Assembly (NCBI GenBank): GCA_949358305.1
Contig: OX442322.1
Coordinates: 9,610,001 to 9,674,000, forward strand
Length of the DNA: 64,000 nt
From: Strigamia acuminata
Lineage: Eukaryota > Arthropoda > Chilopoda > Geophilomorpha > Linotaeniidae
Reading direction: 5' to 3'
The position numbers and the translations under genes are program-made. A model generated the notes under the pieces. It saw only the letters and a list, made by a program, of their open reading frames with translations. It was not told where the DNA came from and made no database searches. How positions within the stretch are numbered: position 1 is the first letter of the stretch; each line of letters opens with the position of its first letter. Shown here piece by piece: positions 8,003 through 55,112 of this stretch.

Positions 8003-11000
8003 TCAGTCCAGTTCAAGAGCTCTCACATGCCTAACTGATCTTTTCAGTTCACGTCCATCGGGTAGCACTACTTTAATGACTCGAGTAAAACCATCCTCAC
8101 CTGGAAAAATCTCCTTTATCCGGGCAAGTGGCCAAAAATAGGGATTTGTTCCTATTTTTTCTAACAACACGATCTGATTCACTTTGGGGTTTTTGAAATT
8201 TCTATCGCCTTTGGTTTCATAAAAATTTCGCAATTGCATAAGGTAACTTTTTCTCCACACTCTCCAAAATTCCCAAATGAACTGTCTGCGTTTAATGTCT
8301 AATTTTCTTAAATCCGTCTTTTTGATGGCACTCAATTTTTTGTTTATAAGGTATTTTGGTAAACCACCGGTTAAAAAATTTTCAGGCGCCAAAATTCTGC
8401 CTCCATCAACACTGTCGGGAACGTAGGACAAAGGTCTTGAATTTAATACGGAACCAATTTCCAAAGCTAAAGTTTGAAGAGTCTCCAAATCAACGGTATA
8501 TCGAAGCAAAGTTTTTCGAAGTTTATCTTTTACTGAACGGACAAGTCGTTCCCATGCCCCTCCCATCCAGGGGGACAGTGGTGGAATAAAAGTCCATAAC
8601 ACTCTTTTTTCAGATAAGAAAGTTTGTATGTCCTTGTGACCAATGAGCTTGCCCCATGATTGTAACTCCACACTACCGCGTTCGAATGTTTTGCTATTAT
8701 CCGAGAATATTTTGGCGGGATAGCCAAAACGAGCTCCAAATCGTCGCATTGCTAGCAAAAACTTGGGAACAGAAAGATCTTCTGACACTTCTAAGTGCAA
8801 GCTTCTTGTCACCATGCACGTGAATAAAAGAATATAAACCTTTTTTCGTTCCTTTTTGTTGTTGCCAACATAAATGGGTCCAAGATGATCAATTCCAGTG
8901 TGTTGGAATGGAGCCGCTGGAGTTACACGTTCAGTGGGAAGGTCACCAGTAGAAGGGTTATTTCTCGCAAGTTTAGCACGTCTGCAAATGGCACACTCTC
9001 GAATAACTGTTTGAATTGTTTTCCTTCCTCTTATGATCCAAAATTGTTCACGCAAGTGATAAAGGGTTTCACTAATGTCACCGTGAAATAATTCTAGATG
9101 TGCTTTTCTGATTAACAGTCGTGTGATCCAACTATCGTAATGCAAAATAATGGGATAGACTTCATCAAATGTTAACAAAGATTTTTTCAAACGGCTTCGA
9201 AGTCTCAGTAATCCGTTTTCGTCAATAAAAAGTTCGAAATTCCTCAAAGTGGAATGTTTGCTTAATTCCCTTTTGTTTTTCACGTCTTCGACTTCCTCCA
9301 AAAAATGTAGTTTCTGCGAAAGTTTCAAGATCTTCAATTGGTTTGCCTCCAACTCGAGTGGCGAGAGGGGCTCACCGCGAACAAGTTGACTTTTCCATCT
9401 CATTATGTAGGAAAACACTCTCAAAAGTCGGTTGTAATTGCTAAAACGTCGGAAAAATTTGTAAATAAAATTCTCTTTAACTTGAATAGTCATAACAATT
9501 ATTTTTCTCTCTTCATCGGGTGGGTTTTCCTGTATAACTTCTTTCTTTTCCAGTTTTGAAACATCAACTCTGTCCCACCAAAGTTTACTGTTCATCAATG
9601 TTTTTGAGTTGTGTGGACGGGTCAATAAGTCAGCTGGATTGAATTCGGTTGGCACATGAGACCATTGCTCAGACTTGGAGAAGGAAATAATTTCCTGAAC
9701 ACGGTTTGAGACATACGGTTTCCAAACATTTTTGTCTGAATTAATCCAGGCGAGTGTAATAGTGGAGTCCGAGTAGTAACGAACTTCAGTGACGGGGTAT
9801 CCAGGAAGAAAGTTCTCGAGCAGATATTTCGTCATTCTGACTCCAACCACTGCTGCTGTTAATTCGAGTCGAGGAAGAGTAACTTTTTTTGCTGGCGCAA
9901 TACGGCATTTACTTAACAACAATGTTCTTTTGCCCTCCACGTTGACGACAAAAATCGTGCAGCCAAATGCTTTTGTGCTGGCGTCACAAAAAACTTCTAG
10001 AGTTATTTCCTGACCTGAATAAGTAGTTAACCAACGTTGAACTTTTAGTTCCTTGAGTTGTTGGATGTCGGAATTCCATTCTTCAATTTCTTTTTTCTCT
10101 GAATCAAGAATTTTTTCATCCCATTTTTTCGTTCGAGCCCAGATCGCTTGAATGAGCAATTTCATTTGCAGAATCACAGGAGCTAAGAGTCCCATGGGAT
10201 CGAAAATTGATGCTAAAAATGAGACAACTTCTCGCTTCGTGATCGGAATTTTTTCAATTTTCGGTATTTTAAACATTATCATGTCCTTTTCTGTGTCCCA
10301 CAGTATGCCGAGCATTTTAATGATTCCAAGATTAGAAAACTCCTCGCCTCGCATGTGGAATCCCTCTTTTTTCAAGTTCTCGAAGACGTCTTTGCTGCAA
10401 GTCGCCCACTTCACAAGGGGAAGTTTTCCGCTGTCTAAAATCATTTTCAATCTCTCGCAATGTGTCGTCGTGTCGGCTGGAAAATCTCCTCCAGATGTTA
10501 AGTCATCCATAAAAATTCCATCATCAAGCGCATCAACTTCTTTGGCGTGTGTTTTCTCAAATTGTTTTGCATGTTTTCTTATGGTTGCGCATAGGAGGAA
10601 TGGTGAGGAAATAACACCAAAGGGCACGACGATCATTCTCAGGATCATAATGTTATTCCACAGGTTTTGCCACGAATAAGGCTGCTTAAAATAATCACGA
10701 GCCACCCACAGAAAGCGTAGAAAGTTTCTTTGAGTCGGGTTGATCATAACCTGTAGGAATGCCTGCTTGATATCCGCTATTATCGGGATGCAATAAAGAC
10801 GAAATCTCACAATAACAAGAATTAAGTCAGGGTTGAGGGAAGGTCCCGGAAATAAACAGTCATTAAGGGAAAGTTTTCCCTTCTTGGATGAAGACGCGTT
10901 AAACACGACTCTAAATTTGGAAGTATCTCGATCCTCTTTTATGACGGGGTGGTGAGGTATATTATATATCCCCTTCTTGAGAAAACGTTCCTCCTTTGGG

Positions 11001-13234
11001 ACTTCCTCCGCGTGATTTTCCTCGATGTACTGCCACATTGAGTCGTCGTAACGTTTTTTATAGTCCTCATTTGCATCGATTCGTTTAAGCGTATTTGCGA
11101 GTTGATTCATTGCCAACTCCCAATTCGATTCTAACTCTTTTTCCTGTCCATTGAAGGGGAGCATCACTTCATATCTTCCGTCCTCCAAACGTGTTGTCGT
11201 GGATTCGAATCGGTCTCGAATAAAGTCGGAATCCTTTTCTCCCGAATCTATCCCGATTGCCTCCAAATTCCAGAGCTTGTCCAACTTTTCATTGATATCA
11301 ACGTTGCAAGTGTTGCAACACGTGGTTAAGTCGGCTTCATCATCAAACAAATCGATGTTTCCAGCTGCACCGGTGAGAACCCAGCCAAATAAAGTATTTA
11401 TAAGGCCCAAATCCTCGTTGATTTTCCTCTTGCCGTCTTTCAGAATTTTCCACCAAACATCCACTCCTAATAAAATGTCAATTTGGGATGTTTTGGCAGG
11501 TAATTCTTCAGCCAATTCAAGATTTAATCCTTTCACCTTTTCTATCACAGTGGAGTTTAAAATTCCTTGCACTCTTGGTAGATTTTCGACCGATAACATT
11601 GTCATTTTGATTTCTTGCGTGTCATTTCTGCTTTTCAAAGTAACGTTAAAAACGTCATAATCCGTTGAAGCAGGAGTAGAATCATTGAAGCGTTGTGTCG
11701 TGGCCGAAATGCTGCCGCACTTTTTCAACTTGATTCTTTCTACTAACTCAGTTGTTATGAAGGATCGGTGACTGCCTGGATCTATCATTCCTCTGATGTT
11801 GTGGGATCCTCCATTTTTGGTTTTGAGGTTTGCCGTGAAGATCATTAATTGAAGAGTCGCGGAGATCGCGCACGAGACGTGTGTTGTCACTTGTGGCTCC
11901 TTGGGCTTCTCGACAATGCTTGATGAATTCTTCACATCTGACTTTTTGCAAATTGTGGAATGGTGTCTTCCGCCACAATGTTTGCAGGAAAACTTCACTT
12001 TACAGTCCCCGACGCGATGGCCAGTTCTAAAACAATTGAAGCAAAGTCTATTCTTCTTGATCAATTCGATTTTTGCGTTGATCTCGAATTCTTTTTTGCA
12101 GGAACCATTAAGGTGATCCTCTTCGCAAAAAATGCACTTGATGCTCTTCGTATTAGCAGGTTTGCTCTCTTGTTTTGTTTCCTGCTTGACTTTGGCACTG
12201 GTTGATTGCTTGGAATCCTGTGTCGCAGCGCAAGTCGTCATGGAACCTTTTTGCTTGCTTTTTTCGGCTTCAGTTTTCTCCTTCTTCACTTTTTCAGAAT
12301 GAGAAGAATTGTCAGTTCTTTCCGCCATAGCTACTTCTTTCAAGAAAAAGTCAAGTAGCTTCATAATGTTTTTGTTTTGAATTCCATGCACTTGATAAAA
12401 ACGCAATGCCATTTGAGTTGGAAATTTGCTGATAATATCCGGCATGAGAAAAGCACCTGAAGTTTGTATTGGTATTTTCAATTGCTCAAGGAGTCTGACG
12501 GTCGAAGAAATTTTGGTTAAATTTGTTCTTAACGCTTTAGTTGGATAGACACTTGTGACAATTTTCATTTCTCTAATTGATTTGATGAGGGCAGTTTGCT
12601 GTGCGTCCTCATCCCCGTAGTTTCTCTCCAACTCTTCACGAGCCAAATGGTATGATTCCTCGATCAAGGGAAAAGTTGAAATCAAAGTGGCTGCTTCGCC
12701 AACACACATTGTTTGTAGATATTGAAGCTTTTCCACATCGCTTAAGTCTGGGTCCTTATGTACTGAAGTTTCGAAGTTACTTTTGAAGGTCTTGTACTTC
12801 AAAATGTCCCCATCGAACTTCACAGACTCCAATTTTGGCAACTTCTGGATTTTTCGGAAAGAAGCATTCATTGTCGTATGACCGCCAGATGCAGTTGACA
12901 CATTTAGTCGTCCTCCCAGTGTAGGAAGGGACCGTTTCGATACTTCCCAACGTCCGCGGAGAAGATCCACTCTTGTTTGAACTGCTTCGAGTTTTTCAAT
13001 GGCTTCAAGATAAAATCCATGTTCAGAATGTATTTGAAGATCATTGAGTTCATTGACAGCACGTGTCTCTCTTGTATTTGCTGTAGATAGCAGCGCCTCC
13101 AACTCTCCCGGGTCGCTGGTCTGCTCCGATACAGTCAGCAAAGCGGAGAGTGAAGTGAGTAGCGCTTCCCATTTTGTCTCCAGAATCTCGAGTTGTTCTG
13201 GAGTGATCATGTTTTGCACGGAAGGATCTGCCAT
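8003..13234 (-). CDS. gag-pol: BEL/Pao Gag-Pol polyprotein, 1743 aa, intact
   Basis: Encodes capsid, protease, reverse transcriptase, RNase H and integrase as one frame. Domains in order: coiled-coil-like Gag with a DUF1759-type region (about 125-300); three CCHC-type knuckles (C367-C379, C398-C411, C417-C429); DUF1758-type protease with D485 in GMIDPGSH; RT with catalytic FMDD at 908-911; RNase H acidic residues D1084, E1124, D1156; integrase zinc region with C1414/C1417; integrase core D1449, D1512, E1562; a DUF5641-type C-terminus. The ATG at 13234 is followed by the typical Gag start. All catalytic acids are present and there is no stop or frameshift. Odd points: the protease has DPG where D-S/T-G is usual, and the RT has FMDD rather than YVDD/YMDD. 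Length fits autonomous BEL/Pao elements. Confidence 0.95.
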   Translation of the reverse strand: MADPSVQNMITPEQLEILETKWEALLTSLSALLTVSEQTSDPGELEALLSTANTRETRAVNELNDLQIHSEHGFYLEAIEKLEAVQTRVDLLRGRWEVSKRSLPTLGGRLNVSTASGGHTTMNASFRKIQKLPKLESVKFDGDILKYKTFKSNFETSVHKDPDLSDVEKLQYLQTMCVGEAATLISTFPLIEESYHLAREELERNYGDEDAQQTALIKSIREMKIVTSVYPTKALRTNLTKISSTVRLLEQLKIPIQTSGAFLMPDIISKFPTQMALRFYQVHGIQNKNIMKLLDFFLKEVAMAERTDNSSHSEKVKKEKTEAEKSKQKGSMTTCAATQDSKQSTSAKVKQETKQESKPANTKSIKCIFCEEDHLNGSCKKEFEINAKIELIKKNRLCFNCFRTGHRVGDCKVKFSCKHCGGRHHSTICKKSDVKNSSSIVEKPKEPQVTTHVSCAISATLQLMIFTANLKTKNGGSHNIRGMIDPGSHRSFITTELVERIKLKKCGSISATTQRFNDSTPASTDYDVFNVTLKSRNDTQEIKMTMLSVENLPRVQGILNSTVIEKVKGLNLELAEELPAKTSQIDILLGVDVWWKILKDGKRKINEDLGLINTLFGWVLTGAAGNIDLFDDEADLTTCCNTCNVDINEKLDKLWNLEAIGIDSGEKDSDFIRDRFESTTTRLEDGRYEVMLPFNGQEKELESNWELAMNQLANTLKRIDANEDYKKRYDDSMWQYIEENHAEEVPKEERFLKKGIYNIPHHPVIKEDRDTSKFRVVFNASSSKKGKLSLNDCLFPGPSLNPDLILVIVRFRLYCIPIIADIKQAFLQVMINPTQRNFLRFLWVARDYFKQPYSWQNLWNNIMILRMIVVPFGVISSPFLLCATIRKHAKQFEKTHAKEVDALDDGIFMDDLTSGGDFPADTTTHCERLKMILDSGKLPLVKWATCSKDVFENLKKEGFHMRGEEFSNLGIIKMLGILWDTEKDMIMFKIPKIEKIPITKREVVSFLASIFDPMGLLAPVILQMKLLIQAIWARTKKWDEKILDSEKKEIEEWNSDIQQLKELKVQRWLTTYSGQEITLEVFCDASTKAFGCTIFVVNVEGKRTLLLSKCRIAPAKKVTLPRLELTAAVVGVRMTKYLLENFLPGYPVTEVRYYSDSTITLAWINSDKNVWKPYVSNRVQEIISFSKSEQWSHVPTEFNPADLLTRPHNSKTLMNSKLWWDRVDVSKLEKKEVIQENPPDEERKIIVMTIQVKENFIYKFFRRFSNYNRLLRVFSYIMRWKSQLVRGEPLSPLELEANQLKILKLSQKLHFLEEVEDVKNKRELSKHSTLRNFELFIDENGLLRLRSRLKKSLLTFDEVYPIILHYDSWITRLLIRKAHLELFHGDISETLYHLREQFWIIRGRKTIQTVIRECAICRRAKLARNNPSTGDLPTERVTPAAPFQHTGIDHLGPIYVGNNKKERKKVYILLFTCMVTRSLHLEVSEDLSVPKFLLAMRRFGARFGYPAKIFSDNSKTFERGSVELQSWGKLIGHKDIQTFLSEKRVLWTFIPPLSPWMGGAWERLVRSVKDKLRKTLLRYTVDLETLQTLALEIGSVLNSRPLSYVPDSVDGGRILAPENFLTGGLPKYLINKKLSAIKKTDLRKLDIKRRQFIWEFWRVWRKSYLMQLRNFYETKGDRNFKNPKVNQIVLLEKIGTNPYFWPLARIKEIFPGEDGFTRVIKVVLPDGRELKRSVRHVRALELD

Positions 13235-14141
13235 GTTTTCTCTCCTCTCACAAATTCACGGCTGCAAATTGCGAAAAGGAAAATAAAATCTCGTTTGACA
13301 AAAAACACTTCGCTTTCAACTTTTAAAAGAATAAAATTTGTTATTTTATCCCCCAAAAATACACAGAATTTTTCAACGTTTAATTGCCCAAATGACAAAA
13401 AATCATATGAAAATGCACAAGAATATCGAGTGTTTTAACAATCAGGGATGCTAAAACACACGAGCGACCTTGAACACGTATGAAAAACGTGACTCAAAAA
13501 GTCCTACACAAGTTTGAAATATTTTCGGCGATTCGTTTGGAACGAAATTCGCACGAAAACCACTATCAAAAATTAGCGTTAATGACTGACAGCCCTTGCA
13601 ATGAGAGACTGACCAGTAACTAGCTTCAAAAAATCTAAATCTCCCCTGGTTAAGCCAGTTATATGGAGATGCATGCATAAAATTAAAGAAAAAACTAAAA
13701 CGATTTGCAATAAAATTCACTTTTACTAAATTTCCCTTAAGATTAGCATATGAAACAGCAATAACACCAAAAAGAATACCCAAAACAATACCCTCATGCA
13801 AACAAAACCTCCAAAATAAATGCACTGAATGATAAAACACAAGAAAAGCAATAAATCCAGGGGCGAATCGACTTCTCAGCACAGCGCGTTGTGTTATCCT
13901 TATCCAAGATGGCGACCGTAGGAAATCGTTGCTGGCACTCAAATGTTCGTAATCGACGCACAAAATGTCACCGTTGCGACTGTAGTCACATTGAACGACG
14001 ACACGTTTTGCTGACGACGACACACGAACGTAAATTCCGCTGCTCGAACCAGATGAACAAGCTAACGTATCACTGACGTAACGGAAACACTCACGAAAAG
14101 CAGACGATATCCTGGTCACGGCACCAAAAGAACGTATTCGA
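13235..14141 (-). other. 5' leader of element B, with long non-ATG frame
   Basis: About 900 bases between 5' LTR and gag ATG. Contains the conserved leader motif at 13881-13894 (sense ACACAACGCGCTGT) and, next to gag, an A/T-rich segment with TTTTATCCCCCA that is duplicated in F. A frame is open from the GTG inside the primer site (14119) to 13451, 222 codons, with a hydrophobic stretch that could be a membrane segment. It has no ATG at its start. Similar open frames occur in C and F. I do not call it a gene. Confidence 0.75.
14111..14128 (-). promoter_or_regulatory. Putative primer-binding site of B
   Basis: Sense TTGGTGCCGTGACCAGG, 14 bases after the end of the 5' LTR. It is the clearest version of the block shared by all BEL/Pao-like elements here. 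Its 3'-end complement ends CACGGCACCA as a tRNA would; the tRNA itself is not identified. Confidence 0.65.
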
Positions 14142-40292: not shown

Positions 40293-40555
40293 GCAACCTA
40301 ATCTCGGTGGGACCTCCACGTGTGAGATTAGGTGGTAGTCTTTGAAATCCCTAAAATCTTCAAACGAAAATAATGAAGGAAAATCTACTACGTATTTCTA
40401 TTTCATCAGTTTAACTTCTTCACATGGAAATATAAACTGAAAATTTAATCTGTCTATTTTTAACTTAAATCTTTTAGTTAAATATTTATCTCCAATATTC
40501 ACTGTTGCAATTCAATCGAATTTAATTGCAACCTAATCTCGGTGGGACCTCCACG
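40058..40555 (-). repeat. 235-bp tandem repeat containing the primer site (x2 + part)
   Basis: The block beginning GCAACCTAATCTCGGTGGG occurs at 40058, 40293 and 40528, spaced exactly 235 bases. The third copy is the working one because it abuts the LTR; the other two carry the same primer-site sequence deeper in the leader. A weaker older copy may start near 39880. Confidence 0.85.
40535..40553 (-). promoter_or_regulatory. Primer-binding site of element H, tRNA-Gln
   Basis: Plus strand AATCTCGGTGGGACCTCCA, i.e. the 3' end of a tRNA-Gln including CCA as I remember it from animal genomes, two bases from the 5' LTR. A 19-base match. Confidence 0.75.
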
Positions 40556-42458
40556 TGTGACGGTGACGACCACAACTCCCATTTGACAATGGTACCGGGA
40601 AGAGATCGCAATAAATAAACAGTGAATACAATACGAGATAAATACAAGACAGTTTATTGTTGGCAAACAATATGGATGAGCTAAATTATACATAGGACTA
40701 ATGCCGACATTTGGCAAGTTAAATCAGCTATTAAACTATACAAAGAATTGGCCAACTGGCCCTAGAATAATATCACTACGGGTCTGGAATATGGGAGCGG
40801 TTTCCCCATCGCTCGACCTGATTATAGATGTCATCTTAAGCCGGATGGCTGTGTCCTGGAGTCCGATACGGCTTCGCTGGTTTCCTTGGTTCGCTGTGTA
40901 AACTATCGCACGTCGATAAATCGAATGATCTGAGCATTGCGGTTGACTTTGTCTGCACCGCCACAACTTTGGGAGGATATTGGTGTAAGTAAATGTATTC
41001 ATTTACTTATCAATATTCCACTTATGAATTATATTTAATTCATATCGTTGTGAATTCTTATTTAGATATTTCGGGAATAAGTTGTCGTCAACTTATCGGT
41101 TATATTGAGTTCAATATGAGATTAAGTCTTCTGACTTGATTTTGGTCCAACTGGTTGTCGAGTTTAAGTTTTGCTGTTATAAATAAAATTGAAGATTAAG
41201 CTTCCCGTCGCAACACACAATTGCCATCGATTAGAATATACGCCTTGCCATGCAGAACGGTATCAAGCGTCCCCGGCGTCGCAGCACGGTCGTCCATCGA
41301 GTGGTTGACGGTACCACGTACACAGGGGTCGATAGCTCGCGGCTCCGCACAGCAGTTTTATCTCTCGCGGTACTAATAATAGACCGACTGCTTTGGCATC
41401 GAATACCATGAGAATCAGCTTGCCAAACACTTGGTGCTACTCGTGGTTACTGTAAAACAGACTGCTTTGGCACCATCAGGTGAAGGAACCGATTCTCAAC
41501 AATACCGATGCTACTCGTGGTAACGGAATACGTTCATACCGAAAAAGACAACTTGGTCCTGTCCGGAGGATACTGAATTGCACAACGGCGGGTTCTCCTT
41601 CGGCGTCGCAACCGTAAACTGTAACATTTATGCAACATAATGATCCCAGCACTTCGACTTCAATTGCCGGCGGTGGCATGATTCTGTAGAATCATGCAAC
41701 GGTTCTTTGCGAATAAATCAACAAAGAACCAAAAGGTTTTTTTACGTGAACAACGAATCATATTTCTTAAGTAACAATACCAAACAGAAAATAATCAAAC
41801 AGAGCTGCAGAATGGCCGGTTGTTTGGGTTTATATAACCTGACTGGATTAAGGATTAATCCAGTTATCCAATTGGAACATGGGTTCCACGAATCCCTCCA
41901 ATCCCGTATCACCGGAAGTGGATACGGAGGAACAATGTGCTAATTCTCACCACAACCGGAACTGGATACCCAGGACCGGAAATGGATCCACCAATCAGAT
42001 CTATTGGTTGATCGATTGATCACCAAATGTCCTGTCCCGCAGAAAATGGAAGTTACATTGTATTTAACATCACAAGACATTAATATATCTTTATATTAAT
42101 GTTCACAAAGCTTCGTTTCATTCTAGTAAATATAGTTTTATATTTATTTACATGTTTTATATTCATATCTTGAATTTGCCGCTAAATCGTAATCGCGCCA
42201 TCTTGTGGCAACATTGCGCATTGACAAATGCGGTTTTAGCAGACGACTCTTCGTGATTCGGCCGGAATCCTTTGATATCAAGTAGGAATGAGTGTTTATT
42301 CTTAATAAACGAACATCTTTGTATTTGAAACATCATAAATAACTTTATTCCAGACATTTATCAGTTTTACACAGAATATCTTCGAGATATCATGATAATG
42401 GCGCAACAGCGCTTCTTTCTAAGAAAATAGGCATTTATAGCCATTGTAAACCGTCATA
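40556..42458 (-). repeat. 5' LTR of element H (1903 bp)
   Basis: TGTGACGGTG...CCGTCATA on the plus strand; pairs with 32814-34715. Confidence 0.93.
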
Positions 42459-42472
42459 GCGTGCTCGCAACA

Positions 42473-42981
42473 GCTTGTTTCCTAATCGTCGCACACAAGA
42501 GGAATGGAGAAGAAATGACGCCAAATGGCACGACAATCATTCGCAGAACCATTAGATTATTCCACAAATTTTGCCATGAGTATGGCTCTTTGAAATAGTC
42601 ACGAGCGACCCACAAAAAACGTAAAAAGTTTGTTTGAGTTGGGTTGATCATAACTTGGAGAAACGCTTGCTTAATGTCTGCTATTATTGGAATACAATAG
42701 AGACGGAATCTCACAATAACTAGTATTAAGTCTGGGTTGAGGGAAGGTCCCGGAAATAGACAGTCATTAAGGGAACGCTTTCCTTTTTTGGATGAAGACG
42801 CGTTAAACACTACTCTAAATTTCGTCGTGTCTCGATCCTCCTTGATTACAGGGTGGTGAGGTATATTGTAGGTTCCTTTCTTCAGAAAACGCTCCTCTTT
42901 TGGGACTTCCTCCGCGTGATTTTCTTGAATATACTGCCACATGGACTCGTCGTAACGTTTTTTGTAATCCTCGTTGGCATC
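42473..42981 (-). pseudogene. pol: F gag-pol piece 3: RT N-terminal part
   Basis: Open frame homologous to B residues of about 720-890 (RT palm/fingers: KFRVVFNASSSKKGK, ADIKQAFLQV, FLRFLWV). Bounded by element G on the left (gctt, 42473-42476) and the thymidine-kinase element on the right (gcatc, 42977-42981). No stop within. Non-functional alone. Confidence 0.9.
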
Positions 42982-44339
42982 TGTTGCTAGCAACATAAAG
43001 GAAAGCTGCTAAACGTCTTAAAAATTAGTCATCTGGAATTATTAAAAAGGGTTTTTAATATTTATCTTAGATTGGGAATTTAATTAGACACTTATTTGAA
43101 TATAAGTCTTCTTTGAGTTAGTTTGAGTGAATTTCTCAGTACTGGTTGATCTGACCGGATAAATCTGGGAAGAAAAGAGTTTTTACATTAGTTATTTATC
43201 CACTTAGAATTTATTTTCTATCTTGTTTACCTGTGTTATGCATGTTTTGATGTTTCCAAGTGTTTTCCTGTTTCCAGTCCACTATTGTCAATGTAGTGAC
43301 AAGGTGTAATGATGCTCTCAGACAGCAAAAGGGTACTAGAATGAGAAATGTATGTTATTATCAGTTTTAAGCTGTTTCAATCAATTTCTGTTTGTTTTCT
43401 GTATATTACTAACCAATTAAGCGTTTTGTTAACTTAGATTGTGTGTAGCCTGTCTAGTGAGCTAATTTCAAGCCTTTCTATCTTCCTGCAAGTGATCTCT
43501 GTTTACATTGTCGGCCATTACTGTGGGAGTGGTCTACTTGTATCTGTAAAGAGAGGAGAAAATGTTTAATCCCAAAGAGTTTTTGTGGGTTCTGATTAAT
43601 AATTAATCACTTAATTATTATGCAATGTAAAAGTGTTAAGTTTAAGATTTATCTGTGTTGATTTATAACTTAACTTCTGCACTTACTGTAAAGTTGCCAG
43701 CTCATTGGTCTAAAATGTCTTTACTTATTCTTTTCTCTATTTTATGAGTTGTTCAGTGTGTTTTAGAGTGAATAATTTAGTTCTCAACGAGCATTGTGGT
43801 TAGAGACTGTTGTTAATGTATACTTTTGCATTTAATGTCAAATACTTGCTGTTAGGCTTATGTGTTTTCAACTATTAACTTCTACGGTAGTTTTGTTGTG
43901 CCAGCAGTACTTATTTCTCTTTACAAGCACTTAGAGACCTCTGTAACTTTAAGTGCAAGTGTCCTTATACAATGTGGAGATAGTTACACTTGTTGTTTCT
44001 TATTATTGTTAAAGTGTGACTTCTTTGTAAAATCCTCGTGATTCAATTGTAGTAGTCTTGTTAAGAATTTAGAGAATAAAATGGTTGCTTTTTATTTCTC
44101 TCCAAGTCTCATTTCTCTATACAACCAGAAAGCAATGTGCAGTGAGTAGAAAAATCCTCCTTCCTCCTCCTTGAACTCACCAGTGGCAGATCATCATGTG
44201 AAGCAGCAAGTTCAAGTCCAGTGTTTGCATTTCTTCAAGTCTTTGGCCAACTTCTGTGTATCAATTTTAGCCAAGCAGCAGTCAAGTATTGCCGCCCCTC
44301 CTTCTGGCCTGGTTGTCGCCTGCGACCTTGCCAGAAACA
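42982..44339 (+). repeat. 5' LTR of element I (1358 bp)
   Basis: Begins with the perfect palindrome TGTTGCTAGCAACA and ends GCCAGAAACA. Polyadenylation signal AATAAA at 44075-44080. Confidence 0.95.
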
Positions 44340-44342
44340 ATT

Positions 44343-44360
44343 TGGTACCGTGAACCAAGG
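44343..44360 (+). promoter_or_regulatory. Putative primer-binding site of element I
   Basis: TGGTACCGTGAACCAAGG, three bases after the LTR. It is the most divergent version of the shared block (TGGTGCCGTGA in the others). Confidence 0.55.
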
Positions 44361-45160
44361 ATTTCTTCCAGTTATCTCAGTGGACCTTCATGTGTGCTGC
44401 AAAATTCATCAGTGGGTTTTGTTCTCAAGCTGTGCAAAGCTTTTATGTGTAAAGTGCCATTGAAGCTGTGCCACTACAGTGAAGTGTATGCTCTCGTCCG
44501 CCTTTCACAGGCAAAAAAGTGGGTTTTTCAAGTTGGATTCTCAAATTGTCAAGATGGTCAAGATGTTTTTCAACTTGGATCAAGCAAGGCTTCGAGAGTA
44601 CGAGCGATCCTGCACGACAATCAATTCCAAACACAACGCAATGTACATCCTACAAGAAGATTTGAAGAAATAATTATTAAGAATTATTATTTAAATAGAA
44701 TAATATCCGAATTTGCTGCTGTAATTATTTCAAAAAGAGTTTTTGATTAGAAACTGGTGTAGTTGGGGGGAGAAGAAGTTTAAGTCTTAACAGTTTGAAT
44801 AAATTCTCGATTCCAGTTTGTGGAATTTAGAGAATATCCAGTGAATTAGTGAATAATACCAAGCTTTAGTGTTGGTATCCCAATTTAAAACGAGTATCTA
44901 GTCAGAAACTCAATTGTGAAAATAAGAGAATTGTCAATTACCTTTAATTATTGAATTTTGGGGGTTAATTTGCCAATCCTGTTAACATCCCGTGTGTTTC
45001 AATCCTGTTAACAGCTTGTGGATATCCATCCTGTTTTTGTGTGTTCAGTAAATCCTAGAGTGTAAAAGAATTAGACAATTTCTTGTTAACCAATTTAGTC
45101 AGTTAAGTTGAGTTTGAATCCTGAACTGATCTTTGAATTCTTCATTTCTCGGTGAGGATT
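44361..45160 (+). other. 5' leader of element I
   Basis: Contains the motif ACACAACGCAATGTAC at 44631-44646 inside an open frame of about 65 codons (44479-44673) whose sequence around it, SKHNAMY, echoes the leader frames of A, D and G; a stop at 44464 separates it from the primer site. The rest up to the ATG at 45161 shows short repeats (AATCCTGTTAAC near 44975 and 45000) and no frame. Confidence 0.7.
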
Positions 45161-48100
45161 ATGGCTACATTATCCGCTGCTGATCTCGAGGAAAAGGAGG
45201 TCATTTGGAAAGCAAAGGCTCAAGGAGCCGAGGATCTGCTGGGATCTTCAGTCAACATTCTAGACGGAGGAGAGCTGGAAGCCATGCAAATAACGGTTGA
45301 CCAGCAATTGAGTGATCTCGCCGACGAATTGAAAGCTCTTAAAGACGAGTCAAAAAGAGAGGACTATTTAGCGGGGCTTCAACGAATTGAAGACATTAGA
45401 ACCAGAGTAAATTTATTGAAGCAAAGAGCAAAAGTGTCTGGAAAAATGGCAGGGCAATTTGGTTCCCATCCGGGACAGAATTCCAGTTTAAACCAGACGT
45501 CCGCTTCATCTAGGAGAAACACGAGATTGCCGAAAACCGACATTGCCAAATTTAGTGGCGATGCAACTGAATATAGAGGTTTTGCGAATTTATTCGAATC
45601 AGCAGTTGATCAGAACACGGAGCTTTCGAACGTGGAAAAGCTTATATATCTGAGGTCATGCTGCACTGGGGCTGCAGAATCCGCAATCAAGTCGTACCCA
45701 ATAACTGATGACGCCTACCCATTAGCGAAAAACACATTGGAGAGTCTATTCGGTTCTGAAAACACGCAGAGAAATGCTATTTCAAAGATGATTAGGGAGT
45801 CGAAACCCGTTTTCGATCTCTACCCAATCGAGCCACTCAAAGCTCTATTCACGTCATTGGCATCTGCTGTCCGGACCATGGCGCAACTGTCTGTGTCAGT
45901 TGACACTACTGGAACGTACCTTATTCCAGAACTACTTAGAAAATTTCCACCGGAGATCTCCCAACGTTTTTACCGAAAGCATCAAGGAAAAGTTGATGAT
46001 GTTAACGTTTTTCTGGACTTCGTAGCAACCGAGATACAACTGGCTGAATTGTCGGAAGAAAGCGTTCTCCTTAAGCGCGCTCATCTGAAGAAGTCAGAAA
46101 AATTTGAGAAAACTTCAAAGGAAACAAGAGAAAGACCAACTGGAACCATGTCCTCATTCGTGACTTCCGAGAATGGAAAATTGAGTATGAATTCCAAGTC
46201 AAATCCAAACCGCAAACCCGCCTGCGCTTATTGTGATGGTGATCACGCACACGCAAATTGTGATGCGGATCTCGATGTACCAGCGAGGATCGAAATAGTG
46301 AAGAAGAAACGACTTTGTTTCAACTGCTTGAGATATAACCACACAGCCAAAGAATGTACCGTGAAGTTTTGTTGTCGCTTGTGTGGTGGAAGACATCACA
46401 CATCGATCTGCAACAAAAACAACAAAGAAAAAGCGATTACACCAAAAGAAGAAAACGTGTCTACTAATGTATCGCTTACCGAGTCGGTGGAGATTCAACT
46501 GATGGTCTTCACTGCTCTTTTTGTGAAGAAAAATGGAGACATGTACCCCGTCCGCGGATTACTAGATCCAGGAAGCCATCGCTCCTACGTCACGAAGAGA
46601 CTAGTAAATAAATTCCGGATGCAAAAGATCGAGACACTACACACGATGACACAGTGTCTGCTCAACAAAAAGCCAGTTCCGACGACACATGATGTCTTTA
46701 GATTCGAACTACAATCAAGACACGGAACAAAAAAGACATCAATCCTTGCATTAGAAACCGACACACTCCCGAAAGTCAAAGGGATAATTGGAGCAGAAGC
46801 CATAAAGCAAGTCCAATCACTCGGACTTGAGATGGCTGAGATACATCCGTCAGAATCGGAAGACATTGACGTCTTATTAGGAAGCAACGCATGGTGGAAG
46901 ATTTGTCAAGGTGGAAGCCGAAAAATCAACGACGAGTTGGGATTAATGGAGACAATTTTTGGGTGGATTCTAAACGGTCGACTGAAACCAAACAACCCGC
47001 TTGAAGAAAACATGGCAGCGTGCAACATTTCTTGCATGGCGGTCGAGTCCAAAGAAGAAGTGATCTCAAATCAACCTGAAAATGACGAAAACAAAATAGT
47101 CCAATTAATTCCGAAATCACTGCCCAACATGAATGGCGAACCCGGTGTGAATAAACAGACAGACGTCACACCTTCTTGTTTTGCCGCGAGCCTCTCCAGT
47201 GGTCTGGAGAAAGAGGAACTGGACACCACCCTCCAAAAAACGAAAAAGTCGTTCAAGGATGGAGGATTGGTCAACAGAACTCCAAGCTCGGACATGAAGC
47301 CGGAATTACGAGGGCGAAATCAGTTAGAGTCAGGGAGAAAGAACGTCGAATTACTTACAAACCAAGTGCCCAGTTTACCCAAATTGTGTGCAATCGTGAG
47401 ATGGAGTGGAAACGTGATTCTGAATTTCTGGAAAAAGAAAATTGATTTGTCAACCAATCAAAAGGGAATTCATCTCATCATTGGTCCAATGTATGCGGGG
47501 AAAACGACCAAGTTATTGAAGCTTTTAGAAAAGGAAGAGAAGACGTCGTCCCTGCTAATTAAACACTCCAATGACGATCGTTACAGTAAAACCGAAGTCG
47601 TGACCCACGACGGTCATCGACGAGAAGCAATCGCGACCAGTAGCCTAACCAATGCTGTGGAAAAAACGAAATTAGTGAAGACAATCGGAATTGACGAAGG
47701 ACAGTTTTTTCCCGACATTTTTACTTTTTCAAATGAAATGGCTGAGCAAAAGAAAAAGGTAATAGTCGCCGCATTAGACGTCGACTTCAAGAGGAAGCCA
47801 TTTGATCAGATATCCGAGTTAGTTCCACTAGCCGAGTCTGTTGTGAAACTACAAGCAAAATGTTATTTTTGCGGAGATAAAGCTGAATTTTCAAGACGAA
47901 TTTCGCACGAAACCCGAGTCAAGATGATAGGAGGGATCGACAAATACAAACCAACCTGTCGAGTATGTTTCTCAAAGCCCATGAAGTCCCTAGAGACGAA
48001 AAGGAAAATCATCAACGGAATTATTCGACTTAGTTGTATGATTGTCAACCGAAGAATACCTCCGTGGATACCAAATTTGATCCGTCAAAGAATCATGCCA

Positions 48101-48178
48101 CCCAGAGTGGAATACGAAAAGGTGAAAGAGGTCTCCCAAATATTATCATCAAAGACCAGAAGTAATCGAACTAAATGA
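45161..48178 (+). CDS. Gag-protease-thymidine kinase fusion, 1005 aa
   Basis: Start at the ATG at 45161 (MATLSAADLEE); an in-frame upstream GTG is ignored. Domains: BEL/Pao Gag with DUF1759-type region (about 125-300); three CCHC-type knuckles (C355-C367, C386-C399, C405-C417); DUF1758-type protease with D469 in LLDPGSH (about 440-600); a 170-residue polar linker; a TK1-family thymidine kinase (about 769-937); a basic tail. The kinase shows the P-loop GPMYAGKTT at 775-783, IDEGQFF with catalytic E846, the RKPF and LVPLAESVVKL segments, and zinc cysteines C901, C904, C933, C936 with IGGIDKY between. In the family this enzyme phosphorylates thymidine to dTMP with ATP in the cytosol. All key residues are intact and there is no intron. 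RT, RNase H and integrase are absent. Fusion inside one frame is direct; enzymatic activity and release by the protease are inferred. Confidence 0.95.
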   Translation: MATLSAADLEEKEVIWKAKAQGAEDLLGSSVNILDGGELEAMQITVDQQLSDLADELKALKDESKREDYLAGLQRIEDIRTRVNLLKQRAKVSGKMAGQFGSHPGQNSSLNQTSASSRRNTRLPKTDIAKFSGDATEYRGFANLFESAVDQNTELSNVEKLIYLRSCCTGAAESAIKSYPITDDAYPLAKNTLESLFGSENTQRNAISKMIRESKPVFDLYPIEPLKALFTSLASAVRTMAQLSVSVDTTGTYLIPELLRKFPPEISQRFYRKHQGKVDDVNVFLDFVATEIQLAELSEESVLLKRAHLKKSEKFEKTSKETRERPTGTMSSFVTSENGKLSMNSKSNPNRKPACAYCDGDHAHANCDADLDVPARIEIVKKKRLCFNCLRYNHTAKECTVKFCCRLCGGRHHTSICNKNNKEKAITPKEENVSTNVSLTESVEIQLMVFTALFVKKNGDMYPVRGLLDPGSHRSYVTKRLVNKFRMQKIETLHTMTQCLLNKKPVPTTHDVFRFELQSRHGTKKTSILALETDTLPKVKGIIGAEAIKQVQSLGLEMAEIHPSESEDIDVLLGSNAWWKICQGGSRKINDELGLMETIFGWILNGRLKPNNPLEENMAACNISCMAVESKEEVISNQPENDENKIVQLIPKSLPNMNGEPGVNKQTDVTPSCFAASLSSGLEKEELDTTLQKTKKSFKDGGLVNRTPSSDMKPELRGRNQLESGRKNVELLTNQVPSLPKLCAIVRWSGNVILNFWKKKIDLSTNQKGIHLIIGPMYAGKTTKLLKLLEKEEKTSSLLIKHSNDDRYSKTEVVTHDGHRREAIATSSLTNAVEKTKLVKTIGIDEGQFFPDIFTFSNEMAEQKKKVIVAALDVDFKRKPFDQISELVPLAESVVKLQAKCYFCGDKAEFSRRISHETRVKMIGGIDKYKPTCRVCFSKPMKSLETKRKIINGIIRLSCMIVNRRIPPWIPNLIRQRIMPPRVEYEKVKEVSQILSSKTRSNRTK

Positions 48179-48213
48179 TGGGTTGTTCGCACTTTCTTTT
48201 CGCCGGCAATCTA
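48179..48213 (+). promoter_or_regulatory. Tail of element I: pyrimidine tract + GCCGGCAA
   Basis: Only 35 bases separate the stop from the 3' LTR. They include CTTTCTTTTCGCCGGCAAT, the same signal as in the other BEL/Pao-like elements. Confidence 0.6.
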
Positions 48214-49571
48214 TGTTGCTAGCAACATAAAGGAAAGCTGCTAAACGTCTTAAAAATTAGTCATCTGGAATTATTAAAAAGGGTTTTTAATATTTATCTT
48301 AGATTGGGAATTTAATTAGACACTTATTTGAATATAAGTCTTCTTTGAGTTAGTTTGAGTGAATTTCTCAGTACTGGTTGATCTGACCGGATAAATCTGG
48401 GAAGAAAAGAGTTTTTACATTAGTTATTTATCCACTTAGAATTTATTTTCTATCTTGTTTACCTGTGTTATGCATGTTTTGATGTTTCCAAGTGTTTTCC
48501 TGTTTCCAGTCCACTATTGTCAATGTAGTGACAAGGTGTAATGATGCTCTCAGACAGCAAAAGGGTACTAGAATGAGAAATGTATGTTATTATCAGTTTT
48601 AAGCTGTTTCAATCAATTTCTGTTTGTTTTCTGTATATTACTAACCAATTAAGCGTTTTGTTAACTTAGATTGTGTGTAGCCTGTCTAGTGAGCTAATTT
48701 CAAGCCTTTCTATCTTCCTGCAAGTGATCTCTGTTTACATTGTCGGCCATTACTGTGGGAGTGGTCTACTTGTATCTGTAAAGAGAGGAGAAAATGTTTA
48801 ATCCCAAAGAGTTTTTGTGGGTTCTGATTAATAATTAATCACTTAATTATTATGCAATGTAAAAGTGTTAAGTTTAAGATTTATCTGTGTTGATTTATAA
48901 CTTAACTTCTGCACTTACTGTAAAGTTGCCAGCTCATTGGTCTAAAATGTCTTTACTTATTCTTTTCTCTATTTTATGAGTTGTTCAGTGTGTTTTAGAG
49001 TGAATAATTTAGTTCTCAACGAGCATTGTGGTTAGAGACTGTTGTTAATGTATACTTTTGCATTTAATGTCAAATACTTGCTGTTAGGCTTATGTGTTTT
49101 CAACTATTAACTTCTACGGTAGTTTTGTTGTGCCAGCAGTACTTATTTCTCTTTACAAGCACTTAGAGACCTCTGTAACTTTAAGTGCAAGTGTCCTTAT
49201 ACAATGTGGAGATAGTTACACTTGTTGTTTCTTATTATTGTTAAAGTGTGACTTCTTTGTAAAATCCTCGTGATTCAATTGTAGTAGTCTTGTTAAGAAT
49301 TTAGAGAATAAAATGGTTGCTTTTTATTTCTCTCCAAGTCTCATTTCTCTATACAACCAGAAAGCAATGTGCAGTGAGTAGAAAAATCCTCCTTCCTCCT
49401 CCTTGAACTCACCAGTGGCAGATCATCATGTGAAGCAGCAAGTTCAAGTCCAGTGTTTGCATTTCTTCAAGTCTTTGGCCAACTTCTGTGTATCAATTTT
49501 AGCCAAGCAGCAGTCAAGTATTGCCGCCCCTCCTTCTGGCCTGGTTGTCGCCTGCGACCTTGCCAGAAACA
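48214..49571 (+). repeat. 3' LTR of element I (1358 bp)
   Basis: Repeats 42982-44339 with no difference seen; AATAAA at 49307-49312. Confidence 0.95.
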
Positions 49572-50607
49572 GCATCTATTCTTTTGAGCGTGTTAGCCAG
49601 TTGGTTCATGGCCAACTCCCAATTGGATTCCAAGTCGACTTCCTGTCCATTGAATGGCAGTATGACTTCATAACGTCCATCGTCTAGACGCTTCGTAGTT
49701 GATTCGAATCGATCGCGAATAAAGTCGGATTCTTTTTCTCCCGCATTTATTCCGATTGCCTCCAAGTTCCACAGTTTGTCCAATTTTTCTTGGATGTCTA
49801 AGTCGCATGTATTACAACATGTTGTCATTCCTTCCTCATCCTCAAACAAATTGGTGTTTCCAGCCGCTCCAGCCAAGACCCATCCAAAAATTGTGTTGAT
49901 TAGTCCAAGGTCGGCGTTTACTTTTTTCTTGCCATCCTTAACGACCATCCACCACACGTCGACTCCTAAAAGCACATCAATTTGAGCAGTCTTAGCTGGT
50001 AGGTCTTCAGCAAGTTCGAGATTTAGTTTCTTCACTTTGTCAATCATTGATGAGTTCAGAATGCCCTGCACTCGTGGCAAATCTTCCACAGAAAGCATGG
50101 AAAGTTTCAATTCTTGAGTGTCATTTTTACTCTGTAGTGTGACATTGAACACATCGTAGTCCGTGGCTGCTGGAGACGAATCATTAAAACGTTGTGTGGT
50201 GGCAGAAACACTGCCGCACTTTTTAAGTTTCAGTCTATCAACAAATTCTTTTGTGATGAACGAGCGATGGCTTCCCGGGTCGATCATTCCACGAATGCTG
50301 TGAGTTCCTCCTGATTTGGTCTTGAGGTCCGCGGTGAATATCATTAGTTGTAGAGTCGTCGAGATTGCGCAGGAAACATGTGTTGTTACTTGTGGCTCCT
50401 TCGGCTTCTCCGCAGCGTTCGTTGAATTCTTCACCTCGGATTTTTTGCATATTGTGGAGTGATGTCGCCCACCACAATGTTTACAAGAGAATTTGACCTT
50501 GCAGTCTCCCACTCTATGCCCAGTTCTGAAACAATTAAAACACAGTCGGTTTTTCTTAACTATTTCGATTTTCGCGTTAATTTCGAAATCCTTTTTACAA
50601 GAGCCGT
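49572..50607 (-). pseudogene. F gag-pol piece 2: zinc knuckles, protease, RT start
   Basis: Open frame aligned with B residues of about 378-720. Includes the second and third CCHC knuckles, the protease motif GMIDPGSHRSF, the LLGVDVWW block and the beginning of the RT region (NQLANTLKRIDA). Ends are element I at the left (gcatc) and element J at the right (ccgt, 50604-50607). The DPG variant of the protease active site is also present here. Confidence 0.9.
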
Positions 50608-52113
50608 TGTTGCGAGCAAGGACGCAACAAAAAGATTAGAAGACTCGCGTTTCACCTCTGAAAATGGTAGAAGATCTTTTTAATTTTAGTCCATAGTTTT
50701 GACCATGAGTTTGGGACATATCTGAGATGTCCAGTTGCCGGTTTTGACCGACGGTCGCATGCAGAGCAGACCTCGGCGGTTGTCGTGTTGTCGATCGCAC
50801 CTGGAATTGGTCAGGGGATATGTCTTTGATCGTTTTGTGGTTGTTTTAGTATTTGTTATTAGTTGTTTACCTCTGTTATTTGCTTTTGAGACGTTTTTGT
50901 GTTCGGTTCGGGTTCCAGTACACTTGTGAATGAGCTGAGTGTATATTCTCAGCATAATCGCCATAGCATAGGTCAACTGGATTCAGGAAACTGTGTATTT
51001 ATTAGTTTTAAAGAGGTTTTACATATTGTTTTGACGGTTGCTAACCTTTGCTGGATGTTTTAGTGTTTTGATGCTCATTGGAGACGTGGGACAGCAAGAA
51101 ACAAACGGTTTTGGGTGTCCTTGGCATTTGAGTGCACATGAGCGCATTGGGATCGTGTTCGGGAGAGAGAGAGACCAGGAAACGCCTCGTTTGGCTTCCC
51201 TGCAACGTCCCCACACTGAGTTTGGAAGTCCCAGCGCTGTTGTCATGCCTTGGTCGACCCTGGAAGTCTGTTTGACTCGTTTCTGCTCTCATTCACGGCA
51301 GTTAGCAACTGCCTGGCCGCCATTTTGGAAAGGAGCGGTTCTCTTTGTGTTTGAGCACTGCTGGGAGATTTTCCTAGAACATAGCAAGCTGGGTAGCAAT
51401 ATTTATTTTAATACTTTGTGATTTTATAGAAGTGTTTTAACTGTACATTTGTTAATTTCACTTAACTTTACAAACAAGTGCAGAGATGAGTATTGAGGTA
51501 GGCTGCCTTGCCATTGGTTGTTAATCTTCTTTTTGCTTTGTTAATTGTTAAGTATATTTTAGATTGAGTTTTGCCTTGGTTTCATTGCTTTATTTTGTCT
51601 AAATTCTATTTATGTTTTAAGAACAAATGTACATAGGTTTTAAGCTATTTTAGTTCAGATTGAATTACGCCATTGTTGCATCATTGCATTGTAGCTTGTT
51701 GTTGCTATGATTTAGTTGCTAGGCGCACTGTTGTTAGAGTAGGTTGCTAAAGAAGCAATAGTTGTTATCTGTTGTTAAGAATAAAGCCAGTTGATGTGTT
51801 TTTACTCTGCTTTGGGTGAATCATTTCTGATCTGGTTTTCTGCTACAAGAAACATGATAATGAGTGAGTAGAGAGTTTTGCATGCTCTCCTCCTCACTGA
51901 AGGCACAAGGTTTTTTCCCCAGTATCCAGAGAGCTGCTTTAATCACTTCAACTAAATGCAGTTGGGCCTAATTTCTCCAGATGCATTTAGGCCTACAACT
52001 TGGGCTGAGAATTCAACTTGTTTCATCATCCACTATACAGTCTCGGGCGGTTTCCAGAGTTTGGTGACCAATTCGCCAGTCTTTTCCTGTGAGATCCAAG
52101 GTTGTTTGCTACA
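50608..52113 (+). repeat. 5' LTR of element J (1506 bp)
   Basis: 5' tip TGTTGCG...CGCAACA (50608-50629) is a hairpin; 3' end TTTGCTACA. AATAAA at 51780-51785; a YY1-like GCCGCCATTTT at 51316-51326. Confidence 0.93.
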
Positions 52114-52126
52114 GGGAGCTGTTTTT

Positions 52127-52144
52127 TGGTGCCGTGATTCCAGG
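52127..52144 (+). promoter_or_regulatory. Putative primer-binding site of J
   Basis: TGGTGCCGTGATTCCAGG, 13 bases after the LTR; identical in K at 63027-63044. Confidence 0.6.
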
Positions 52145-52170
52145 ATTTCGTGCGCGTGTGTACAGCGCGC

Positions 52171-52386
52171 ATGGAAAAGAGGTCATTTGGACGTTCAGCA
52201 AGTGATTCAAGTGGTTTGGTGCGTGCCAGTTGGTTCGTTTGTGCAGCTGGTTCTGTGAGCGACCTGCATCAAGTGCGCACGCCAGAGAGTCACGTGAGAG
52301 CGGCCATTGACGTCCTGAGTCTGCCAAGTCGTCAACACAACGCAATGTGCAAGTTGGACAGCTGCCTGAAGAAGAAGAACATTTAG
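52171..52386 (+). CDS. Possible leader ORF of element J, 71 aa, unknown
   Basis: ATG in CGCATGGAA, ends 36 bases after the leader motif, with HNAMC where A, D, G and I have HNAMY. Same place and frame relation as the longer leader frames of A, D and G. No domain; identical in K (63071-63286), which gives no information on selection because J and K are almost the same. Confidence 0.25.
   Translation: MEKRSFGRSASDSSGLVRASWFVCAAGSVSDLHQVRTPESHVRAAIDVLSLPSRQHNAMCKLDSCLKKKNI
52335..52350 (+). promoter_or_regulatory. Conserved leader motif ACACAACGCAATGTGC
   Basis: One base different from the A/D/G/I version; about 190 bases after the primer site. Confidence 0.55.
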
Positions 52387-55099: not shown

Positions 55100-55112
55100 G
55101 CAATTAGAGAGT

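What the first reader, a model, noticed from the sequence alone, without database searches (positions are those of the whole stretch)
45161..48178. A BEL/Pao-type LTR retrotransposon has captured a thymidine kinase, fused in frame to Gag and protease
One uninterrupted frame runs Gag, zinc knuckles, protease domain, linker, then a complete TK1-type thymidine kinase (P-loop, DEGQF, zinc cysteines, IGGIDKY). The element has paired LTRs and a 5-bp duplication, so the kinase is part of a mobile unit and not a host gene next to one. Retroelements with a dUTPase are known; I know of no LTR retrotransposon with a thymidine kinase. A plausible role is to raise dTTP where reverse transcription occurs in non-dividing cells, possibly inside the Gag particle since the enzyme is made as part of Gag. 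That role is inference.
Basis: partly seen in the sequence, partly recalled or inferred. Interest (0 to 1): 0.97.

Follow-up and report, generated by a model that had tools for sequence, protein, structure and literature searches.

The report
Polymerase-less retrotransposon carrying thymidine kinase
In an arthropod genome, a jumping element lacks its own DNA-copying enzymes and instead carries a thymidine kinase, an enzyme that helps make a DNA building block, fused to its shell protein; about a hundred related loci exist and the kinase looks kept by selection.

Summary
Confirmed. Window 42977-49576 is one young LTR element: identical 1358-bp LTRs, 5-bp TSD, and a 1005-aa frame Gag, zinc knuckles, protease, linker, complete TK1-type thymidine kinase. 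It lies inside another BEL frame, which reads through when the flanks are joined.

Added here: (1) No RT, RNase H or integrase; the kinase stands in the pol position. (2) Not an assembly join: in the 237.5-Mb own genome the 46 best-scoring matches (of 1370 candidates) are full length without stops. (3) A second family B, with other LTRs, aligns from Gag through kinase at 51% identity, so the fusion is old. (4) Of 103 A/B protease loci listed, 0 has a pol-sized frame. (5) Kinase dN/dS is 0.11-0.20, against 0.62-0.65 for the linker in the same A comparisons. (6) Active-site motifs are present in 36 of 36 loci read.

Best reading: a non-autonomous BEL lineage moved in trans by RT-bearing BELs and bringing a Gag-tethered kinase that supplies dTMP for reverse transcription. 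Anatomy and selection are shown; helper, packaging, activity and role are inferred. Host unnamed (TTAGG telomeres); donor unresolved.

The parts
42977..42981 (.). target-site duplication GCATC, left copy
42982..44339 (+). 5' LTR, 1358 bp, TG...CA, identical to the 3' LTR
44340..44365 (+). putative primer-binding zone, alike in family B and in two RT-bearing BELs of this genome
44340..45160 (+). leader between 5' LTR and frame
45161..48178 (+). single frame Gag-protease-linker-thymidine kinase-tail, 1005 aa
45551..45976 (+). BEL Gag domain DUF1759 (residues 131-272)
46223..46411 (+). cysteine-histidine (zinc-knuckle) cluster, residues 355-417
   Evidence: only residues 385-400 have a (sub-threshold) Pfam hit
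46478..46978 (+). protease region, residues 440-606, with DPG at 469-471
   Evidence: alignment to the intact BEL; motif place
46979..47461 (+). linker, residues 607-767, relaxed (dN/dS 0.62-0.65 in four A comparisons)
47462..47980 (+). TK1-type thymidine kinase, residues 768-940
47981..48175 (+). C-terminal tail, residues 941-1005; residues 941-981 also align in family B
48179..48213 (+). pre-LTR stretch with the motif TCGCCGGCAATC
48214..49571 (+). 3' LTR, 1358 bp
49572..49576 (.). target-site duplication GCATC, right copy
49577..50635 (-). interrupted older BEL, zinc-knuckle to pre-RT part (the open frame itself runs 49514-50635, into the LTR)
42454..42981 (-). interrupted older BEL, RT part
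8003..13255 (-). intact RT-bearing BEL gag-pol frame in the window, used as comparison; its LTRs are 6383-7951 and 14142-15710

Best explanation
The element belongs to an RT-less BEL/Pao lineage (families A and B) that encodes only Gag-protease-thymidine kinase. Its RNA is copied and inserted in trans by RT/integrase-bearing BELs of the same genome, which have alike primer-binding and pre-LTR motifs. The kinase is made as a C-terminal extension of Gag-protease, in the place that Pol normally takes, so it is brought to or into the Gag particle and may be freed there by the protease. It turns thymidine into dTMP, which host kinases carry on to dTTP, and so eases cDNA synthesis where dTTP is scarce. 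SHOWN: anatomy, movement as a unit, copy number, age of the fusion, lack of pol in the listed loci, purifying selection on the kinase, presence of the active-site motifs. INFERRED: the helper, packaging, catalysis and the dTTP benefit.
For: Anatomy. Kinase: Pfam E 2.6e-54; human cytosolic TK chain 2wvj_A E 1.1e-41; model pLDDT 92.2, pTM 0.88; best Foldseek hit 1w4r_A E 1.8e-20, human TK1 1xbt chains TMt 0.94-0.95. Copies: the 46 best-scoring matches of 1370 candidates are full length with no stop. Movement: TSD of 4 bp (8) or 5 bp (2) in 10 of 10 elements read out of the 15 other LTR pairs, 9 distinct sites; in 8 of 8 copies the held 679-680 nt of the 5' LTR show no mismatch to the own 3' LTR, one has a 2-nt gap. 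Old fusion: A and B align at 51% over residues 2-981, linker and start of the tail included. No pol: of 103 A/B protease loci among the 150 scored of 1027 candidates, 0 has a frame above 1013 aa, while 12 of the other 47 rows (43-48% identity) have frames of 1723-1844 aa. Selection: TK dN/dS 0.138, 0.185, 0.189, 0.202 (A_win against L046-L049), 0.18 (L047-L048), 0.114 (two B copies); Gag-PR 0.085-0.137. Excess of synonymous change in TK: p 6.6e-5, 2.9e-4, 2.0e-6, 0.0075; linker p 0.18 and 0.07; TK against linker p 0.018 and 0.007. Shared cis motifs.
Against: No expression, enzyme or particle data. No helper identified; the nearest RT-bearing BELs share only 43-48% of the protease region. Selection would act on a kinase used for anything. 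TK yields dTMP only. The list is of best matches and so favours intact copies: 8 of 55 A and 11 of 48 B protease loci have frames shorter than full length, and one A row has a stop. The dN/dS pairs are not independent and the A copies are mosaic; the site counts are rounded and no transition bias was allowed for. The linker ratio is not high everywhere: 0.484 for L047-L048 and 0.277 for the two B copies (the latter on one synonymous and one other change). The motif pattern had to be widened (a first pattern with too narrow gaps found 0 of 30), and it lets pass G-to-R before DEGQFF in 5 loci and D-to-G in DKY in 2.
Confidence: 0.6

Rival explanations
1. The kinase domain is kept for something other than dTTP supply: as a folded adaptor, an oligomerising module for the Gag particle, or a thymidine/dTTP sensor; catalysis is secondary.
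For: The domain is a Gag fusion; TK1 enzymes form tetramers (recalled); selection on sequence does not tell catalysis from folding.
Against: P-loop, DEGQF, the CxxC pairs and the substrate-loop motif are present in 36 of 36 loci read, 5 of them with a change next to DEGQF.
Confidence: 0.15
2. The kinase serves the host: mobile TK copies stand in for an ordinary host TK1, and host selection keeps them.
For: No ordinary TK1 gene stood out with either query; the 150 rows are 54 A, 44 B, 13 C, 34 D and 5 E class loci, many repeated.
Against: Both searches were full at 150 scored rows (of 202 and 200 candidates) and see genes exon by exon, so a host gene with introns can be hidden. Host need does not explain a fusion to Gag-protease kept in two families, with Gag-PR under selection too.
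Confidence: 0.08
3. Gag-PR-TK elements are parasites or antagonists of the RT-bearing BELs; Gag and TK help them compete for packaging, not to feed reverse transcription.
For: They depend on RT from elsewhere and are many and young; in cattle, helper-dependent ERVK elements dominate new insertions (PMC10924933, passages read).
Against: It does not say why a kinase with its active-site motifs is kept.
Confidence: 0.1
4. Passive passenger: a processed thymidine kinase copy was picked up and is carried along without use.
For: Passive gene capture by LTR elements is common, e.g. Bs1 (PMC13317346, passages read).
Against: TK dN/dS 0.11-0.20; shared by families 51% identical; neutral drift to 70% identity leaves 1.9% of 2000 simulated kinases without a stop, to 60% 0.4%.
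Confidence: 0.03
5. Assembly or annotation artefact.
For: None found; long reads were not available.
Against: 46 full-length matches on several contigs, TSDs in 10 of 10 elements read, a second family with the same order.
Confidence: 0.01

Closest known systems
BEL/Pao LTR retrotransposons (survey PMC3118150: one passage seen)
   Same: DUF1759 Gag, zinc knuckles, protease, TG...CA LTRs, short TSD, primer-zone and pre-LTR motifs alike to RT-bearing BELs of this genome
   Different: no RT, RNase H or integrase; thymidine kinase in their place
Maize Bs1 (known to me here through passages of the reviews PMC13317346 and PMC7264820)
   Same: an LTR element with transduced gene sequence
   Different: the review says that none of the Bs1 segments is a full-length frame; here a whole enzyme is kept under selection in two old families
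Bdelloid LTR elements with ORF3 enzymes, and orchid Gypsy elements with an AlkB-like demethylase (PMC5408684, PMC9289625: abstracts read)
   Same: LTR lineages that fixed a foreign enzyme
   Different: there the enzyme is an additional frame beside gag and pol; here it is fused to Gag-PR and pol is gone
Retroelement dUTPases (bdelloid LTR elements: abstract of PMC5408684; betaretroviral Gag-Pro-dUTPase: recalled)
   Same: a thymidylate-related enzyme carried by a retroelement
   Different: another enzyme and reaction; those elements keep RT
Helper-dependent LTR elements such as cattle ERVK D-type (PMC10924933: passages seen)
   Same: many, young, dependent on RT-bearing relatives
   Different: D-type elements lack functional genes; A and B keep Gag, PR and TK under selection
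TK1-type thymidine kinases of cells and of large DNA viruses
   Same: Pfam family, fold and motifs
   Different: long branch (1.35) and unresolved place in the tree; part of a Gag polyprotein

Membership tests
BEL/Pao LTR retrotransposon | paired LTRs with TG...CA and a TSD of about 4-6 bp (length range recalled) | tested here: met
BEL/Pao LTR retrotransposon | BEL-type Gag (DUF1759) and aspartic protease | tested here: met
   Gag. Protease: by alignment; Pfam hits only in family B and below cut-off
BEL/Pao LTR retrotransposon | BEL-type RT, RNase H and integrase | tested here: not met
   0 of 103 listed A/B loci has a pol-sized frame. Filed as a non-autonomous derivative, not as a full member
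BEL/Pao LTR retrotransposon | primer-binding and pre-LTR signals that a BEL RT can use | tested here: inconclusive
   motifs alike; use not testable
TK1-type thymidine kinase | P-loop, DEGQF, substrate loop, two CxxC pairs, TK1 fold | tested here: met
TK1-type thymidine kinase | thymidine phosphorylation | not testable with these tools
   no assay
Non-autonomous LTR element with captured gene (Bs1-like) | no pol, captured gene within the LTRs, moved as a unit | tested here: met
Non-autonomous LTR element with captured gene (Bs1-like) | an identifiable host donor gene | tested here: inconclusive
   one clade of the genome's five TK classes is not rejected (p-AU 0.487); no ordinary TK1 seen, but capped searches
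Helper-dependent retroelement | mobilised by RT/integrase of a relative | not testable with these tools
   RT-bearing BELs are present in the same genome; no mobilisation data

The most novel reading that the evidence does not exclude
A division-of-labour retroelement system: an RT-less BEL lineage has long kept Gag, protease and a Gag-tethered thymidine kinase under selection, takes RT and integrase from other BELs, and brings nucleotide salvage into the shared particle; the slot behind the protease is a cargo site, because a sister element (L078) carries a hydrophobic tail there instead of the kinase.
Probability: 0.35. Interest if true: 0.93.

Novelty: new variant of a known kind. Interest (0 to 1): 0.83.

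Why it matters
Captured genes in LTR elements are mostly fragments, or extra frames beside pol. Here a whole metabolic enzyme stands in place of pol, is tied to Gag, and has been kept while two families diverged to 51% identity. If the kinase feeds reverse transcription, dTTP supply limits retrotransposition in this animal strongly enough to be selected on, which makes the question of what limits a retrotransposon inside the cell directly testable. It also gives an example of an RT-less lineage that stays coding and numerous, instead of decaying, next to its presumed helpers.

Tried and rejected
Assembly join: rejected. Neutral passenger: made unlikely. Autonomous partner with the same LTR: the LTR search scored 40 of 122 candidates; 32 of the 40 rows form 16 pairs 5.22-5.23 kb apart, 7 of the 8 single rows lie next to a listed TK copy, and one (C8:7127809) lies further off than expected and was not followed. 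Autonomous partner in the A/B clade: none among 103 listed loci. BEL remnants in the linker: only a 17-residue similarity at E 0.044, not used. A full-length TK-pol protein: the 1999-aa frame is an artefact of 4499 N in the locus.

Gag-TK relatives elsewhere: a whole-protein search (7 hits among the 7999 candidates scored, none a Gag-TK fusion), a search with residues 745-1005 (none of 3484 candidates; it did not return P0004, a TK-bearing hit, nor any other, so it is weak evidence) and one scan of viral contigs (5 pattern matches, no relative). No other animal genome could be searched. Donor: two trees, 51 rows and 30 rows, leave it open; from the 59 hits, one search used 49 and one search used 22, with P0004 added. 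The 11 rows behind '47 of 59 invariant columns kept' were chosen by me as eukaryote-type and include unnamed metagenome proteins; 2 of the 12 lost columns are gaps.

Mistakes of mine: and one search had wrong coordinates; one search read five of eight loci in the wrong orientation and was replaced; one search used a motif pattern with too narrow gaps (0 of 30) and was replaced with a wider one; minus-strand frame coordinates were not converted, so one search is void for the L078 frame and was replaced.
Full report
What is there. The frame at 45161-48178 (+) is open and codes 1005 residues; in 500 base shuffles of the internal region the longest frame was 171 aa. Pfam sees BEL Gag (DUF1759, residues 131-272) and a thymidine kinase (PF00265, residues 770-937, E 2.6e-54); a zinc knuckle is below the cut-off. 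The protease is seen by alignment: residues 4-606 match the intact BEL of the same window at 37%. The LTRs 42982-44339 and 48214-49571 are 1358 bp and identical, begin TG and end CA, and GCATC stands on both sides. The element sits in the frame of another BEL on the other strand; with the element and one TSD taken out, the flanks give one frame of 528 aa, 86.8% identical to the intact BEL at 8003-13255. So it arrived as one unit.

What is missing. A translated search of the intact BEL gag-pol against the window finds Gag-protease in this element and no RT, RNase H or integrase; between the kinase and the 3' LTR there is no room for them. The element is therefore non-autonomous.

Copies. The window lies in a 237.5-Mb assembly of 157 contigs. 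With the whole protein as query, 46 of 1370 first-look candidates were scored; these 46 run over residues 1-1005 without a stop, 34 at 99-100% identity (open frame 1013) and 12 at 96-97% (open frame 1009). This list holds the best matches and is biased to intact ones. With the protease region alone, 150 of 1027 candidates were scored: 55 A rows (78-100%), of which 47 have the full 1009/1013 frame; 48 B rows (65-67%), of which 37 have 995 or 1002; and 47 rows at 43-48%, of which 12 have frames of 1723-1844 aa. No A or B row has a frame above 1013. Some rows are duplicates of one locus on two contigs: L001 and L006 share their flank. Fifteen of the 55 A rows lie in C8:6.80-7.53 Mb.

Movement. 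Of the 40 LTR rows scored, 32 form 16 pairs, the window's included. For 10 of the 15 others I read the flanks: 10 of 10 have a TSD, 4 bp in eight and 5 bp in two, at 9 distinct sites. In 8 of 8 copies the held 679-680 nt of the 5' LTR show no mismatch to the 3' LTR; L003 has a 2-nt gap. The insertions are young.

Age of the fusion. Locus L040 shows family B: LTRs of about 956-958 bp, identical, TSD AATC as read from the ends printed, and a 995-aa frame. A and B align at 51% identity from residue 2 to 981, through linker, kinase and the first part of the tail. One fusion before the split of A and B is the simplest reading; exchange of segments between the families is not excluded.

Selection. 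Nei-Gojobori dN/dS for the kinase is 0.138, 0.185, 0.189 and 0.202 for the window copy against L046, L047, L048 and L049, 0.18 for L047-L048, and 0.114 for two B copies; for Gag-PR 0.085, 0.107, 0.114 and 0.137 (L049 and L050 hold part of Gag-PR, L048 none); for the linker 0.631, 0.645, 0.622 and 0.636 in the window-copy pairs, 0.484 in L047-L048 and 0.277 in B (two changes in all). The tail varies: 0.243 to 1.193 where it can be computed. Between A and B, synonymous sites of Gag-PR and kinase are saturated. Synonymous excess in the kinase is significant in four pairs (p 6.6e-5, 2.9e-4, 2.0e-6, 0.0075), in the linker in neither of two (0.18, 0.07); kinase against linker p 0.018 and 0.007 (rounded site counts, no transition bias). 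The A1/A2 differences pile up over linker and first half of the kinase, and synonymous change differs between Gag-PR and kinase (Fisher p 8.3e-5), so copies are mosaic.

The kinase. The TK1 set of P-loop, DEGQF, substrate loop and two CxxC pairs is found in 36 of 36 loci read, 30 A loci with the window's own among them, four further A copies and two B copies, with a pattern that I had to widen. Five loci have R for G just before DEGQFF and two have G for D in DKY. Against 11 chosen eukaryote-type kinases, 47 of 59 invariant columns are kept. AlphaFold2 gives pLDDT 92.2 and pTM 0.88; Foldseek finds type II thymidine kinases first (1w4r_A, E 1.8e-20). In a tree of 51 rows the kinase has a branch of 1.35 and no resolved place. 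In a tree of 30 rows A and B join (97/74), and one clade of the genome's classes A to E is not rejected (p-AU 0.487); the A to E kinases printed there look shorter behind the first helix than most others, a hint and not a test.

Other kinases in this genome. Of 150 rows scored with the kinase domain (of 202 candidates), by my reading 54 are A, 44 B, 13 C (216-269 aa frames, two longer ones doubtful because of N in L039), 34 D (190 aa) and 5 E (221-239 aa). Class D lies in a dispersed repeat of about 20-23 kb, 98.8% identical between two places. I do not know what that repeat is. No ordinary host TK1 stood out with a stick-insect kinase as query, but that list was also full at 150 rows.

Helper. 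RT-bearing BELs exist in the window (8003-13255: Peptidase_A17, RVT_1 below cut-off, Integrase_H2C2) and elsewhere (L077, 1755 aa). A, B, the window's BEL and L077 have alike sequences behind the 5' LTR, and A, B, L077 and the window's BEL alike stretches before the 3' LTR. That fits use of one machinery but does not show it. L078 is a further RT-less element: LTR repeats of 886 bp at 99.4%, an 897-aa frame with Gag-PR 48% identical to A, and a tail with hydrophobic stretches where A has the kinase. So the place behind the protease may be a cargo slot.

How it probably works. The kinase is a Gag-protease extension like Pol, so it should travel with Gag; it would make dTMP, host kinases dTTP, and cDNA synthesis by a helper RT would profit. 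This rests on inference from the fusion, the intact motifs and the selection. Rivals are a structural use, host use, and competition with RT-bearing BELs.

What is known. Ten searches of the held library list no paper whose title or abstract start tells of an LTR element with a thymidine kinase; 'thymidine kinase', 'Pao' and 'retrotransposon' as whole words occur together in 0 papers. The library leaves out most subscription journals, and Repbase was not available. Precedents with captured enzymes keep pol (PMC5408684, PMC9289625, abstracts); Bs1 carries fragments (PMC13317346, passages).

Host. The pattern of six TTAGG units occurs 7317 and 11387 times on the two strands against 4 and 6 for the reversed control, from base 1 of contig C1 on: arthropod-type telomeres.

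Noticed in passing
G000 classes C, D, E, e.g. L041, L043, L042: Further intronless TK frames of 190-269 aa in repeated contexts: 13 C, 34 D and 5 E rows of 150 scored (of 202 candidates). Class D lies in a dispersed repeat of about 20-23 kb, 98.8% identical between two places; a 163-aa frame in it has no Pfam hit.
   Followed up: partly
L078 (G000:C14:35500-43400), frame 3276-5969 minus: A third RT-less element: LTR repeats of 886 bp (99.4%), Gag-PR 48% identical to A, then a tail with three hydrophobic stretches instead of the kinase.
   Followed up: partly
window 6383-15710 (-): Intact RT-bearing BEL: gag-pol frame of 1750 aa at 8003-13255 between LTRs 99.8% identical.
   Followed up: partly
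L046, L047 against the window copy, frame nt about 1950-2550: Differences between A subfamilies pile up over linker and first half of the kinase, as after recombination between copies.
   Followed up: partly
G000:C8:6.80-7.53 Mb: 15 of 55 A protease rows lie in 0.73 Mb of a 237.5-Mb genome; three flanks (L004, L007, L008) fall into one kind of repeat.
   Followed up: no
G000:C8:7127809-7129166: An A-type LTR further from the next listed kinase copy than the usual spacing; solo LTR or interrupted element.
   Followed up: no
window 50608-53100 and 61508-64000; 32814-34715 and 40556-42458: Long direct repeats at 99.8-99.9% identity, nested repeats of the older BELs or recent duplications.
   Followed up: no
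window 35312-36817 (-): A 501-aa open frame without an assigned family.
   Followed up: no
window 40023-40560 and 54961-55262: Tandem repeats of 235 bp and of about 44-50 bp.
   Followed up: no
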